Source: Tubulanus polymorphus (taxonomy: Eukaryota; Nemertea; Palaeonemertea; Tubulaniformes; Tubulanidae). Taken from it: a stretch of DNA of 64,000 nucleotides. The notes beneath the pieces are model-generated. The model ran no database searches and was not told the origin of the DNA. It saw only the letters and a list, made by a program, of their open reading frames with translations. The translations under genes and the position numbers were made by a program. The DNA lies in contig NC_134029.1 in NCBI RefSeq assembly GCF_964204645.1, positions 17,688,450-17,752,449 of the forward strand. Reading direction: 5' to 3'. Numbering within the stretch: position 1 is the first letter of the stretch; every line of letters begins with the position of its first letter. Positions 37,325 through 44,640 of the stretch are shown in pieces.

Positions 37325-37394
37325 TTAAACTAGCCTACTTGCTAAATAAAGAGTGGCCACTGTTGAAAATGAATAATCAGAATCAGAACAATTA

Positions 37395-37829
37395 GTGAAC
37401 TATTTTGACACAACTTATGTTACTGGAATATACCGAGAGCGACGAGCTCGTGATGTTGATATGCGCATAAACATTAGAAGGGTGCCACCTCGTTACCCGC
37501 CGGCAAAGTGGAATGTTAATACAGCAACATTAAACAACGACCCAAGAACGAATAACGTCTGTAAAGGATGGAATAACCGTTTCCGAAACCTAGTTGGACA
37601 TAACCATCCATCGATATGGCGATCGATCCGATCCCTTCAACTCGAGGCCTCTGTAACATCAACGAGAATTGCCCAACATTATGTTGGGAATGAAACGCAA
37701 CGCAGAGTAAGGAATGTGCACCGTCAACAACAGGAGCGCCTACGTAACCTATGCATCAGATACAGAGATGGTGATGTTGAAATTGAGGCATTTCTCCGTG
37801 GTGTTGGTCACAATATTCACCTCGGATAA
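37395..37829 (+). pseudogene. C-terminus of a MULE (FLYWCH-associated) transposase
   Basis: About 144 residues resembling the end of metazoan Mutator-like transposases: a YFDTTYVTG block, PRTNNVCKGWNNRFRNLVG, HPSIWRSIRSLQLE, then a basic helix and QQQERLRN. The catalytic DDE part and the FLYWCH finger are absent. The segment is open to its stop, but there is no start or upstream exon, so it is a truncated copy. Confidence 0.75.
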
Positions 37830-38056
37830 TCTGTGAAATTTAACAAGCTACGTGCATAAAAATGACATTATTATGTGACTTAGCATATACGACATGCAAG
37901 CTACATGCATCAAAAATGTGACTATCATAATTTTGAAATTCACTATAAAAACTATGGTTTAAAAGTAAAAATAAAATATGTAATGTACTTATGTATTCCT
38001 TAATAATGTTGTAAAAAAAGTTAATTTTTTCTACTCTAGTTTTATAGAAAAGTGGA

Positions 38057-38186
38057 TATGGGGGAATTCTTACCAGGGGGGATTTTTACCTAGGGGGGAT
38101 TTTTACCGGGGGGATTTTTACCTGGGGGGATTTTTACCTTGTGGGATTTTTACCGGGGGGATATTTACCGGGGGGATTTTTACCTA
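38057..38186 (+). repeat. Tandem array of GGGGGATTTTTACC monomers
   Basis: Seven to eight imperfect monomers of 15-19 bp, right-hand orientation. The right boundary abuts LINE sequence. Confidence 0.9.
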
Positions 38187-39068
38187 AATTCGTTTCTATT
38201 GAATCTATACATAAAGATAAACTTCCATTGTTACGGAAAAATATACCTAAGTATTTAAAACAATCCACCAGTTCTATTTTGTTACCGTCTATGTAAAACT
38301 CTGGGGGGTTGCGACGCATTCTTTTCTGAAAGATAATTACTTAAGTTTTTTCCAAATGGATTTCTAGTCTCCAAAGTTGGCAGTAGTCAAATAGCACGTC
38401 CATTTCATATTGTAAACTCTCCGGGCTTTCTGCTAGAAGCACAGCATCATCGGCATAAAATAAGGCAAAAAGATTAAACCAGAAATCTAAGTTTTCTTGG
38501 TCATGAAATAAATTAATGCCATCACATTGATTTTCCGATAGGTATGATTCCATATCATTCAAATAAATTGAGAAAAGGATTGGGGAAAGGTTTTCAACTT
38601 GCCGCAATCCTTAAAACTCTGACCTTTAAAATAATCAGACCGTATTCCATCTACACGAACACACGACTTGGCATTTTGATAGATATTAGTAATTACCCGA
38701 ATGATCTTCCCTGTTACACCCATGCTTATGATTTTGTGCCATAACGCTTTTCTCCAGATCGAGTCGAAAGCTTTACAATATAGTCGATAAAGACACAATA
38801 GAGCCTTTTATTACTAGCCAGGAATATATCAATTATTGACTTTAATGAAAAAATATGATCAAGCACCGAGTGCCCCTTTCTGAAACCGGCTTAGTTCTTC
38901 AGCAAAAGATCGTTCATTTCTAAGTAGGCCGTAAGGCGGTCATTAATTAGGCTAGAAAATAACTTTCCTTGGCAGCTAAGGAGGGTAATCCCTCTATAGT
39001 TGTCAGGGTTTGTAACGTCACCTTTCTGTTTATAAATGGGGGTGATAGTGCCAATACTCCAAGCGTCG
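38187..39068 (-). pseudogene. LINE reverse-transcriptase core
   Basis: Shows YRGITLLSCQGKLFSSLIN, KAFDSIWRKALWHKI, LSPILFSIYLND and the catalytic FYADDAVLLAES, in the order expected for a reverse transcriptase. Frames shift at about 38890 and 38600. Truncated on the left by the array. Confidence 0.85.
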
Positions 39069-39069
39069 G

Positions 39070-39178
39070 GGTCCAGTTCCACAGTTCTGAGTTAAGATTT
39101 GACCCTGGGTTAAAAAATTGAAAATGAACTAAGTTTAACTCAGAGTTTACTCTAACTCACAACTGTGGAACTGGGTCC
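39070..39178. mobile_element. Palindromic MITE inside the LINE
   Basis: GTCCAGTTCCACAGTT and AACTGTGGAACTGGGTCC are inverted; AACTCAGAGTTTACTC mirrors the inner left side. The insertion splits the LINE between GDIP and DAWSIG. The rest of the insert (39179-39492) has three GAGCTAGACAAAAGA-like repeats at 39294-39350. Confidence 0.7.
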
Positions 39179-39492
39179 TGGTGATTGATCGCCTCTATAT
39201 ACGGATGGAACTTCTCCAAAATAAATCTAACAAACTAGGCGATCTCATGGGATCTAACGTCTGAACCGATGGCTGCCAAGTTCTGAGCAAAATAGAGCTA
39301 GACAAAAGAGAGCTTGACAAAAGAGAGCTAGACAAAAGAGAGAGCGAGAGTCGTGTGCCTCTGGGTTTTATACCCAGCAGAACCAGACGACCACGTCGAC
39401 CATACAACCAGTGTACAGGACTTTGACCTATCAGATCATATTTCCTGAGCACTCGTCATACGGAACAGTATTGTCTATGAATTTGTCTATGA

Positions 39493-39608
39493 ATATATAT
39501 ATATATATATATATATATATATATATATATATATATATATATATATATATATATATATATATATATATATATATATATATATATATATATATATATATAT
39601 ATATATAT
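39493..39608. repeat. (AT)n microsatellite
   Basis: About 58 perfect AT units in the block that interrupts the LINE. Confidence 0.97.
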
Positions 39609-39618
39609 CTAATTAAAT

Positions 39619-42284: not shown

Positions 42285-42355
42285 GCTAACGTACGTCCGT
42301 TCAGTTCAGTGGAACGATATTCAATTTTAGAATGTATGCATAAACTCGGGTTAGC

Positions 42356-43078
42356 GGTAAAAATCCCCTAGGTAAAACTCCCCCAGGTAAAAAAATCCCC
42401 TGAGAAAAATCACGTCGGTAAAAATCCCCAATTCTTCAAAGTAGGTAAAAATTCCTATCCTTTTGAATGTTGTGTAAGTAGATACAATCTTAAGGTCAAT
42501 TAATTCATATCATAGATACATATATCCAATTTATTCATATTTTACTGTGGGACACCATACGGATATCATGAGCATACCAACTATAGTTTAAACTTTTTGA
42601 ATTAAAACATACTACAAATTAAATAGTTCATTAATACTAAATTAGTACCGTACTTAAAGTTATCGCAGTTAATGAAAGGGTTCATCGCACATTTCAAATA
42701 TATTACACTTGCTTGCATCTAAAATATTTCAAATTAAAAGTTCATTATTGCTTATTATTCATGGCATCGCACAGCTCAAATATACCACAAATTAACAAGA
42801 TTTCACAGTTCAAAAATATTCCAGCTCGAAATTTAAGATATTAACAAAAATAAATTCATCATTCTTATTAATTCTTACAATATATTTTATTCTAAGAGTT
42901 TGCTTAAAAATTTATCCCAACGAAAGATTTCATTGTGCAGTTCAAACATATTTCAGTCTCATGGCAAATGAATAAAATTGGAGAAACATTTTTCTTTGAA
43001 ATGTTCTTGAAAATCGTCAAGTGGGGATTTTTACCTACTTTGAATATTTGGGGATTTTTACCTAGGGGATTTTTACCT
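42356..43078. mobile_element. Foldback element, GGTAAAAATCCCC arrays
   Basis: Left array 42356-42459 (GGTAAAAATCCCC orientation), right array 43022-43078 (GGGGATTTTTACC). The AT-rich interior is also part of a larger inverted repeat: about 42585-42810 mirrors 43140-43385 (AGTTCATTAATACTAAA). No ORF. Confidence 0.7.
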
Positions 43079-43450
43079 AAACCATAAACTCTAGGCTGCA
43101 AAGAAATACGTTTTCAGCGGCTCTAATCTACGAGCAATTATCTGAACAATATAACTCATTTTAACTTGTGGTATATTTCACTGCGCTATGCGTTAAAATA
43201 TTAGAAATAATGAACTTTTAATTTGGAATATCTTAAACACGAGCTTGTATTATATTCTAATTGTGCGATTAACTCTTTTTAACTTGCGAGGCTGCTTGCG
43301 AGCGATATGAACTGTGCGATAACTTTAAGCATTATTTTAGTATTAATGAACTGTTAATTTGTCGTATTTTCAAATTTCATTTGTACAATAATAAGTTCTC
43401 TCATGATATGGATTCGATTTACGTATCAATATTTTCATGTTGACGGGGGC

Positions 43451-43479
43451 CTGAAGATGGCTAATAGCATTAGCCGAAA
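43451..43479 (+). ncRNA. Hammerhead-like ribozyme core (partial)
   Basis: CTGAAGA (fits CUGANGA), a perfect seven-pair stem (GGCTAAT/ATTAGCC), then GAAA directly. Stem III and the cleavage triplet are not identifiable upstream. Confidence 0.35.
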
Positions 43480-43833
43480 CGTTGATGGTAATCATTTCGA
43501 TATAAACCTTTTGATTTTAGCTGAATTCATTGTGGGATTTCTCTCGTTATTCATCATACACGGATATTGTGTATTTTCTCGTCTCATTTCCATGTTGGTT
43601 TTGAACAACTTAGATTTCATGATAATACCTTATTAACTTTAGATGACAGTAATACCTTTAATTATATGTAAAATATGATCACTGCTGAACGTGTAATAAG
43701 GAATATATATTTACTCCAGTGACAATATTTTGATTCAAAGATTTAATTCAATCATCTAGTCTCAGTCTGTATAGTAAAAATTCTATCTGTAAAGAGTCAT
43801 AATGAGATTTTGCGCTATAGAAAAATAAATTCT

Positions 43834-43914
43834 ATTATTATCATCATCGTCATCATCATCATTATTATTATCATTATCATTATTATTATTATCATTATTA
43901 TTATTATTATTATA
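43834..43914. repeat. Trinucleotide ATT/ATC repeat
   Basis: About 27 units of ATT with interspersed ATC. The isoleucine-rich frame is an artefact. Confidence 0.95.
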
Positions 43915-43992
43915 AAACTTCTGGCTAACCAAGAGCTAACCGAATGCCGGTATATAGAAGGTGGTCGCTTGAAAATTAGTTATTTTTACGCA

Positions 43993-44451
43993 AATATCCC
44001 CCATAGGTAAAATCCCCTCCGGTAAAAATCCCCCCAAATTTGATTTCACAACAATATTCAACAAAATTCTTCAATATTCTTACGTTGAAAAAATTTCTGA
44101 TTTTCCGTGATTTTTTTCACAATATTCACCTTAGATAATCAATGACTTTGACCAAGCTACGTGCATAAAAATGACATTATTCTGTGACTTTTAGCTAGCA
44201 ACAGCTGAACATTTCTATGAAGAAATCTAGTTCAAAAGTAATAGCAAAATATATGTGTACCTATCTATGTACTAAGTATTATTGTGAAAAGTATTATCTG
44301 TTTTCATTTCGGTTTTTTACTTAAATTTGATAGAAAAATGAAATTGGGAGATTTTAACCAGGGGGATTTTTAACATGGGGATTTTTACCTGGGGGATTTT
44401 TACCGCGTGGGATTTTTACTGGGGGGATATTTACCGGGGGGATTTTTACCT
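43993..44451 (+). mobile_element. Compact foldback copy carrying MULE transposase end
   Basis: Left array GGTAAAATCCCCTCC (43993-44036), about 300 bp interior, right array GGGGGATTTTTACC (44345-44451). The interior from about 44085 matches the last transposase codons and 3' flank at 37790-37900 (CACAATATTCACCT, AGCTACGTGCATAAAAATGA). It looks like a deletion derivative keeping both ends. Confidence 0.75.
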
Positions 44452-44607
44452 ACATTCAACCGATTCGTATCCCAAGAATGAGAATTGTATCTAACCACAG
44501 TAATTATTCCTCATCAAACGTTCGGTCATCATATTGTACATCTATACATCATTACTATCATCTTCAGGTAATAGAAGTGCAATAAAATCTAGAATATGAT
44601 TTGAGTA

Positions 44608-44640
44608 TTTGGGGATATTTACCAAGGGGATTTTTACCTA
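44608..44640 (+). repeat. Terminal-array fragment
   Basis: Two GGGGATTTTTACC-type monomers. The following 400 bp (44641-45070) show nothing recognised. Confidence 0.7.

What the first reader, a model, noticed from the sequence alone, without database searches (positions are those of the whole stretch)
37330..44640. Foldback elements with tandem-array ends belong to a MULE transposon
The transposase C-terminus at 37395-37829, its 3' flank and a GGGGGATTTTTACC array are contiguous. At 43993-44451 the same last codons and flank lie between a left and a right array in opposite orientation. So the arrays are the termini of a Mutator-like element, and the compact copies are its deletion derivatives. 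Foldback elements with repeat-built ends are known (Drosophila FB, sea urchin TU), and MULE foldbacks are known in plants. A metazoan FLYWCH-type MULE linked to such ends seems little described.
Basis: partly seen in the sequence, partly recalled or inferred. Interest (0 to 1): 0.75.

Follow-up and report, generated by a model that had tools for sequence, protein, structure and literature searches.

The report
Jumping genes with tandem-repeat ends
The repeat arrays in this DNA (apparently an animal's) are the ends of cut-and-paste jumping genes of the Mutator kind, seen here mostly as shortened copies, and very similar elements are already known from mosquitoes and nematodes.

Summary
In an unnamed 267.8-Mb genome (taken to be an animal), the GGGGGATTTTTACC arrays are terminal inverted repeats of a FLYWCH-MULE (Phantom-type Mutator) transposon. 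L009 carries the transposase C-terminus, and L052 the FLYWCH N-terminus, each between opposed arrays and inside a 9-bp target duplication. In 14 of 14 held copies of the 3' flank that reach its end, array units follow. Of 25 candidate elements, 10 have 9/9 duplications and 5 have 8/9; mispaired ends give 0 and 4 of 580. The window copy (37277-38191) is an internally deleted, left-truncated fragment in a LINE. The foldbacks belong to two sister lineages, not one.

Beyond the finding: eight MULE copies of other lineages have array ends on both sides, with other units but the same ~15-bp period; four of them (L012, L017, L019, L021) have a Pfam FLYWCH or MULE match inside. Some MULE loci showed no arrays. 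A correlation of unit with transposase divergence was not significant.

The claim "little described" fails: Meloidogyne Tm1 and Aedes Muta1/Muta5 have the same architecture. Verdict: a new member of a known kind, of modest interest.

The parts
37277..38191 (+). Family A element copy, internally deleted and left-truncated, lying in a LINE
   Evidence: 37277-37377 = L052 1737-1837 at 99%; right cap TAAATTC; LINE homology ends at 38196 and resumes at 37254
37377..37829 (+). Open frame for the transposase C-terminus (150 codons); the E of the TNNxxExWN motif reads K
   Evidence: (53 matches in the genome, a lower bound)
37830..38060 (+). 3' flank shared by family A copies
   Evidence: 41 matches to 37790-38060
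38062..38184 (+). Right terminal array, 8 units of about 15-16 bp
42348..43082 (.). Compact family B element (735 bp) with opposed arrays; 9-bp target duplication CATAAACTC at 42339-42347 and 43083-43091
   Evidence: single-copy site read by eye in the L031 flank
43993..44457 (+). Compact family A element: left array, last transposase codons and 3' flank, right array, cap TACATTC; no target duplication found
44611..44645 (+). Solitary family B right end (two units and cap TACAACC); partner not found
13210..14020 (.). Compact family D element, units CGCCCAAAATACCTC, target duplication GTATAGATA 9/9
   Evidence: same end as the MULE locus L024 (read)
45481..46202 (.). Compact family C element, units GGTAAAAATGCCAGA; no target duplication
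   Evidence: (arms 67 nt, 94% complementary); L037 carries a transposase piece between arrays of the same unit
45073..45180 (+). Family E array GGAAAAAATGGCCAA after cap GAATGTA; partner not identified

Best explanation
[quoted passage not shown] From outside in, an end consists of a short cap, usually about 6-10 bp and different at the two ends, then a variable number of ~15-bp units, then unique DNA. Shown here: the anatomy, the 9-bp target duplications, the transposase coding pieces inside elements, and the deletion derivatives. Inferred: the transposase binds the repeated units through its FLYWCH domain, pairs the two ends as a multimer, cuts at the caps and makes a 9-bp staggered cut at the target. 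Copies with most of the gene deleted would be moved in trans as long as they keep both ends, which would explain why compact foldbacks are common. Slippage or unequal exchange would change the unit number.
For: L009 has the transposase C-terminus between two opposed A arrays with duplication CCAGAAGAA 9/9. L052 has a FLYWCH domain (PF04500, E 6.5e-16) between two A arrays with CTGTTTTAT 9/9. In 25 candidate elements, 10 have 9/9 and 5 have 8/9 duplications, against 0 and 4 in 580 mispairings; a first run with less exact edges gave 7 and 6 of 26, against 0 and 5 in 622. In 14 of 14 held flank copies that reach the flank's end, array units follow. Eight MULE copies of other lineages (L012, L017, L018, L019, L021, L023, L025, L029) have inverted array ends on both sides, four of them with 8/9 or 9/9 duplications (L018, L019, L023, L025). 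A FLYWCH (L012, L019) or MULE (L017, L021) Pfam match lies inside four of the eight. A-, B- and C-array transposases form one group in the tree (100/97). Of 14 neighbouring pairs of exact A/B dimer arrays within 6 kb, 11 are reverse-then-forward; 8 of these 11 are simple pairs of 238-687 bp. A compact B element sits inside another MULE gene (L020), with a 7/9 duplication.
Against: No intact full-length A, B or C copy was found; the A element is inferred from separate derivatives. 10 of 25 candidates have no convincing duplication (7/9 or less), among them the window's own 43993-44457 and C elements and the MULE copies L012, L017, L021 and L029. Of six held flank copies that do not reach the flank's end, four have units beyond it and two (L046, L051) show none at up to 3 mismatches. 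No bracketing inverted arrays were recognised at L014, L015, L022, L026, L027 and L036; L016, a duplicate of L014 (99.9%), was not scanned separately. L015 has E arrays on both sides of its gene but in the same orientation. Arrays were seen at one end only in L013, L020, L024, L034 and L035. Binding and trans-mobilisation were not tested.
Confidence: 0.93

Rival explanations
1. The arrays are an independent foldback/MITE family that merely inserted beside MULE fragments, so the contiguity with the transposase is accidental.
For: Compact B elements do insert independently next to or inside MULE genes: L029 5617-6128 has its own duplication GATTTTATC, and L020 has one inside the gene. The 4.6-kb array pair around the L029 MULE is such a coincidence. 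Two of six weaker flank copies show no array beyond the flank (L046, L051).
Against: The join of 3' flank and array units is seen in 14 of 14 held copies that reach the flank's end. L009 and L052 have gene pieces and both arrays inside one target duplication. Sister MULEs have their own array TIRs.
Confidence: 0.04
2. The array is a minisatellite internal to the MULE, after the transposase ORF, and not its terminus, as is tabulated for aphid Phantom elements.
For: PMC6446971 lists 'Mini-satellite after the transposase ORF (aphids)' for Phantom (passages seen).
Against: Of the 15 candidates with 8/9 or 9/9 duplications, the duplication starts 6-9 bp outside the array on both sides in 10, and the arrays are inverted at the two ends.
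Confidence: 0.02
3. The compact foldbacks are moved by another superfamily with array-built ends, as in Galileo (P superfamily, THAP domain).
For: Galileo shows that such ends can occur with a THAP transposase (PMC3688188, abstract).
Against: The coding pieces inside the elements are FLYWCH or MULE C-terminus. No THAP or P-type match was listed for the 19 ORFs scanned, three of which are not MULE pieces. The duplications are 9 bp.
Confidence: 0.02

Closest known systems
Tm1 of root-knot nematodes (Gross and Williamson 2011, PMC3169594; passages seen)
   Same: FLYWCH + MULE transposase; asymmetric 7-bp motifs at the two outer ends; variable arrays of 13-15-bp units (mostly 14); 9-bp target duplications; MITE-like and deletion-derivative classes outnumber the coding element.
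   Different: Unit sequence differs (CGATTCAGTATCCGC there). One family described there in root-knot nematodes; several lineages with distinct units in one genome here. Motifs B and D were not looked for here.
Muta1 and Muta5 of Aedes aegypti (PMC5225508; passages seen)
   Same: 13 of 14 MULE families there have FLYWCH; 10 of 12 long-TIR families have 9-15-bp subterminal tandem repeats; Muta5 has nine 15-bp repeats plus an 8-bp terminal motif; 8-9-bp duplications; many derivatives, of which those tested (Muta1NA1-5) were mobilised by Muta1 transposase in yeast.
   Different: Muta1 has a palindromic 10-bp terminal motif. Activity was shown there for Muta1; nothing was tested here.
Phantom subclass of Mutator (Marquez and Pritham 2010; paper not held; content recalled, and cited in PMC6446971 and PMC4079207)
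   Same: FLYWCH-MULE proteins in animals; recalled to include elements with foldback-like termini.
   Different: Could not be compared in detail.
Drosophila FB and sea urchin TU foldback elements (recalled; sea urchin element cited in PMC4079207, passages seen)
   Same: Ends built of tandem repeats; TU is recalled to have 15-bp units and 8-bp duplications.
   Different: No comparison of sequence or transposase made here.

Membership tests
Phantom-type FLYWCH MULE (Mutator superfamily) | FLYWCH domain at the N-terminus | tested here: met
   PF04500 in L052 (A lineage, 6.5e-16), L013, L012, L019, L020. The window fragment lacks this part.
Phantom-type FLYWCH MULE (Mutator superfamily) | MULE transposase domain | tested here: met
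   PF10551 in L013, L014, L017, L020, L021, L034. For A, B and C only by homology of the C-terminal part; no Pfam match for the window ORF or L011:4653-5234.
Phantom-type FLYWCH MULE (Mutator superfamily) | 8-11 bp target duplications | tested here: met
   10 of 25 with 9/9 and 5 with 8/9; mispaired control 0 and 4 of 580.
Tm1/Muta-type foldback ends | TIRs built of 13-15-bp tandem units | tested here: met
   198 of 230 unit spacings up to 24 bp are 14-16 bp, mode 15 (137), over ten unit types in hand-chosen array regions.
Tm1/Muta-type foldback ends | Short terminal motif outside the array, different at the two ends | tested here: met
   A: GGTAACA / GAATGTA; B: GGTTGTA / GGTTAGC; F: GGTGTACG / GAATCCCTG; G: GGAATCCACC / GAATTTGGTA, from L023.
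Phylogenetic place within Phantom (group 20 of PMC6446971) | Clusters with named Phantom/Muta/Tm1 transposases in a tree | not tested
Galileo (P superfamily) | THAP domain and P-type transposase | tested here: not met
   No THAP or P match listed for the 19 ORFs scanned with Pfam; FLYWCH and MULE found instead.

The most novel reading that the evidence does not exclude
Within one genome, a radiation of FLYWCH-MULEs keeps one end design fixed (a ~15-bp period and unlike caps, one usually beginning GG and the other GAAT in lineages A, C, D, F and G) while the sequence of the unit drifts between lineages from a common ancestral unit of the type nCAAAATCCCa. The fixed period would reflect how the transposase multimer sits on DNA, and the drifting unit its changing FLYWCH recognition. 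That would make it possible to read FLYWCH binding specificity off the transposon ends.
Probability: 0.3. Interest if true: 0.5.

Novelty: new member of a known kind. Interest (0 to 1): 0.3.

Why it matters
It shows, in one more genome, that foldback elements with array-built ends can be the dead-end forms of FLYWCH-type Mutator transposons, and it assigns orphan foldbacks in this window (A, C, D) to transposase lineages through coding pieces or shared ends. Several lineages side by side, each with its own ~15-bp unit, give a natural data set for asking what the arrays do and how FLYWCH domains recognise DNA.

Tried and rejected
The 4.6-kb array pair around the L029 MULE first looked like a full-length array-ended copy. 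It was rejected: the MULE there has its own TCAAAATCCCATAG array TIRs, and the right array belongs to a compact B element with its own duplication GATTTTATC.

L010, L011 and L028 are about 98% identical over 7.7-10 kb, so they count as one duplicated locus. Their transposase starts at about residue 186 of L013N, next to a compact B element, and no left partner array was assigned. An outer pairing there gave no duplication (5/9).

Duplication test: array edges were set by hand. Between and I corrected the right edges of L009 (8/9 became 9/9) and L040 (5/9 became 9/9), added L052 and L012, and dropped two alternative pairings (L010 outer, L029 outer: 5/9 and 4/9) and a loosely guessed L020 G pair (4/9).

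A Mantel test of unit similarity against transposase identity over nine lineages was not significant (Spearman 0.21, p 0.16), so co-divergence is not claimed as shown. Units are more alike across seven lineages than shuffled ones (8.33 against 7.36, sd 0.20, 0 of 2000 shuffles) and than reversed ones (16 of 21 pairs higher, 2 lower). I wrote the units by hand from TRF and array readings, so this is suggestive only.

Target duplications for the window copy's right end (GTTTCTATT) and for the solitary B end (ATCTCCAGC) were sought in the window and not found next to a left cap. The literature searches cover open-licence PMC papers only. The species was not identified; that it is an animal is inferred.
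Full report
What is in the window. The ORF at 37377-37829 (150 codons), its 3' flank and an eight-unit array at 38062-38184 are contiguous. A second copy at 43993-44457 has a left array in reverse orientation, the last transposase codons, the same flank and a right array. The two flanks agree at 163 of 234 aligned positions, with a local score of 112 against at most 33 in 200 shuffles.

What the protein is. The window ORF has no Pfam match, but the genome (G000, 267.8 Mb, 77 contigs) holds 53 matches to it, a lower bound. 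Relatives at 44-52% identity carry FLYWCH (PF04500) or MULE (PF10551) domains, or both (L013, L020). The E of the relatives' TNNxxExWN motif (taken from recall to be catalytic) is K in the window copy and E in its nearest kin L009. The window copy is broken in other ways too: 37277-37377 is the 5' region of the element (99% to L052 1737-1837), joined to the C-terminal codons by an internal deletion. The whole lies in a LINE whose homology ends at 38196 and resumes at 37254.

Do the arrays belong to the element? A DNA search with the 271-bp 3' flank gave 41 matches. Nineteen reach position 265 or beyond. I held the DNA of 14, and in 14 of 14 array units follow at once or within about 30 bp: multi-unit arrays in 12, a single unit in 2 (L044, L048). 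Of the five not held, four have an exact array dimer within 75 bp. I also held six weaker copies that stop short of the end: four have units beyond (L045, L047, L049, L050) and two have none at up to 3 mismatches (L046, L051). Two derivatives decide the question. L009 (6456-7665) has the transposase C-terminus between opposed arrays, inside the duplication CCAGAAGAA. L052 (1063-2483) has a FLYWCH domain between opposed arrays, inside CTGTTTTAT. They share the same left end (85.6% over 218 bp).

Target duplications. For 25 candidate elements I sought the best pair of 9-mers 3-15 bp outside the arrays. Ten match 9/9, five 8/9, one 7/9, three 6/9 and six 5/9. Mispairing left ends with right ends from other loci gave 0 at 9/9 and 4 at 8/9 of 580. 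A first run with less exact edges gave 7 at 9/9 and 6 at 8/9 of 26, against 0 and 5 of 622; the changes between the runs are told under Tried and rejected. Window elements 42348-43082 (CATAAACTC) and 13210-14020 (GTATAGATA) are among the perfect ones; 43993-44457 and 45481-46202 are among the failures. The site of the 42348 element can be read once, without the element, in the flank of L031 (by eye).

More than one lineage. Arrays with the GGTAAAAATCCCC core fall into two families. A has G-rich units of 15-16 bp and caps GGTAACA/GAATGTA. B has a TACTTTGAATATTTG-type spacer and caps GGTTGTA/GGTTAGC. The finding's span holds two A copies, one complete B element and one solitary B end. Of 78 exact dimers in the genome, grouped into 64 arrays, 14 neighbouring pairs lie within 6 kb, and 11 of these are reverse-then-forward. 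Eight of the 11 are simple pairs of 238-687 bp; the other three are the L029 coincidence and two copies of the duplicated B locus.

The design recurs in this genome. MULE copies of other lineages have TIRs of other ~15-bp units on both sides: TCAAAATCCCATAG in L018, L019, L025 and L029; CATTTAGTCTTCTGA in L017, L021 and L023; CCAAAATCCCACA in L012. A FLYWCH (L012, L019) or MULE (L017, L021) Pfam match lies inside four of these eight, and four of the eight have 8/9 or 9/9 duplications (L018, L019, L023, L025). Arrays were seen at one end only in L020 (CATTTAGTCTTCTGA), L013 and L034 (TCATTTTCCCTCCAG), L024 (CGCCCAAAATACCTC) and L035 (GGACAAAACTCCTCC). L037 has GGTAAAAATGCCAGA arrays around a transposase piece. 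The compact D element of the window shares its end with L024, and the compact C element shares its unit and caps with L037 (read). Over ten unit types, in array regions chosen by hand, 198 of 230 spacings up to 24 bp are 14-16 bp.

Loci without arrays. Six transposase loci showed no bracketing inverted arrays: L014, L015, L022, L026, L027 and L036. L016 is a duplicate of L014 (99.9%) and was not scanned separately. L022 and L036 are fragments. L015 has E arrays on both sides of its gene but in the same orientation, and a plain 259-bp inverted repeat around it; the 99% identical gene in L014 is not accompanied by that repeat, so I do not take it for the element's TIR, though this is not settled.

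Tree. I used 24 of the 27 transposase loci held (L016, L036 and L052 left out). The rows from A, B and C arrays form one group (100/97), F (100/100) and G (100/100) are each one group, and H lies beside F with weaker support (81/84). L037 fills only 33% of the columns, the tree is unrooted, and near-identical copies inflate such clustering. The unit-to-transposase correlation over nine lineages was not significant, although the units resemble each other more than shuffled or reversed ones.

Mechanism. Shown: cap, array, interior, array, cap; 9-bp duplications; coding pieces inside; deletion derivatives; insertion into other elements (a LINE, another MULE gene in L020, another A element in L033). 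Inferred: multiple binding of the transposase to the arrays and movement in trans. Precedents are Galileo, where the THAP domain binds sites in the tandem repeats (PMC3688188, abstract), and Muta1, whose transposase moved natural derivatives with differing TIR lengths in yeast (PMC5225508, passages).

Novelty. Tm1 of root-knot nematodes has asymmetric 7-bp ends, 13-15-bp arrays, 9-bp duplications and a FLYWCH-MULE transposase. Muta5 of Aedes has nine 15-bp repeats and an 8-bp terminal motif. The elements here are therefore a new member of a known kind. What I did not see in the passages read is a comparison of array units across lineages of one genome; this is not a claim that none is in print.

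Noticed in passing
window 13210-14020: Compact foldback with CGCCCAAAATACCTC arrays and perfect 9-bp duplication GTATAGATA, sharing its end with the MULE locus L024.
   Followed up: yes
window 45073-46202: A GGAAAAAATGGCCAA array (partner not found) beside a compact element with GGTAAAAATGCCAGA arrays (arms 94% complementary).
   Followed up: partly
window 39998-40221: Near-perfect palindrome (89% identical to its own reverse complement over 229 aligned positions) inside the LINE region.
   Followed up: no
window 36489-39996: Interrupted, decayed LINE on the minus strand (54-88% protein identity to the LINE in L013) that hosts the window A copy; ORFs further on, to about 42300, look by eye like its endonuclease part.
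   Followed up: partly
window 33276-34568: Open frame on the minus strand matching glycosyl transferase family 11 (PF01531, E 1.4e-44).
   Followed up: no
window 6180-6713, 29268-29566, 31696-32298: Longer tandem repeats with periods of 145 and 154 bp; the last two look related by unit sequence.
   Followed up: no
L010, L011, L028: Three 98% identical stretches (7.7-10 kb) on different contigs carrying a B-lineage transposase fragment: recent segmental copies or unmerged haplotypes.
   Followed up: partly
L033 138-1150: A family A element nested inside another family A element, each with an 8/9 target duplication.
   Followed up: yes
L015 3869-3933 and 8396-8470: Family E arrays (AGGAAAAAATGGCCA) on both sides of a MULE gene but in the same orientation, with a plain 259-bp inverted repeat between them and the gene.
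   Followed up: partly
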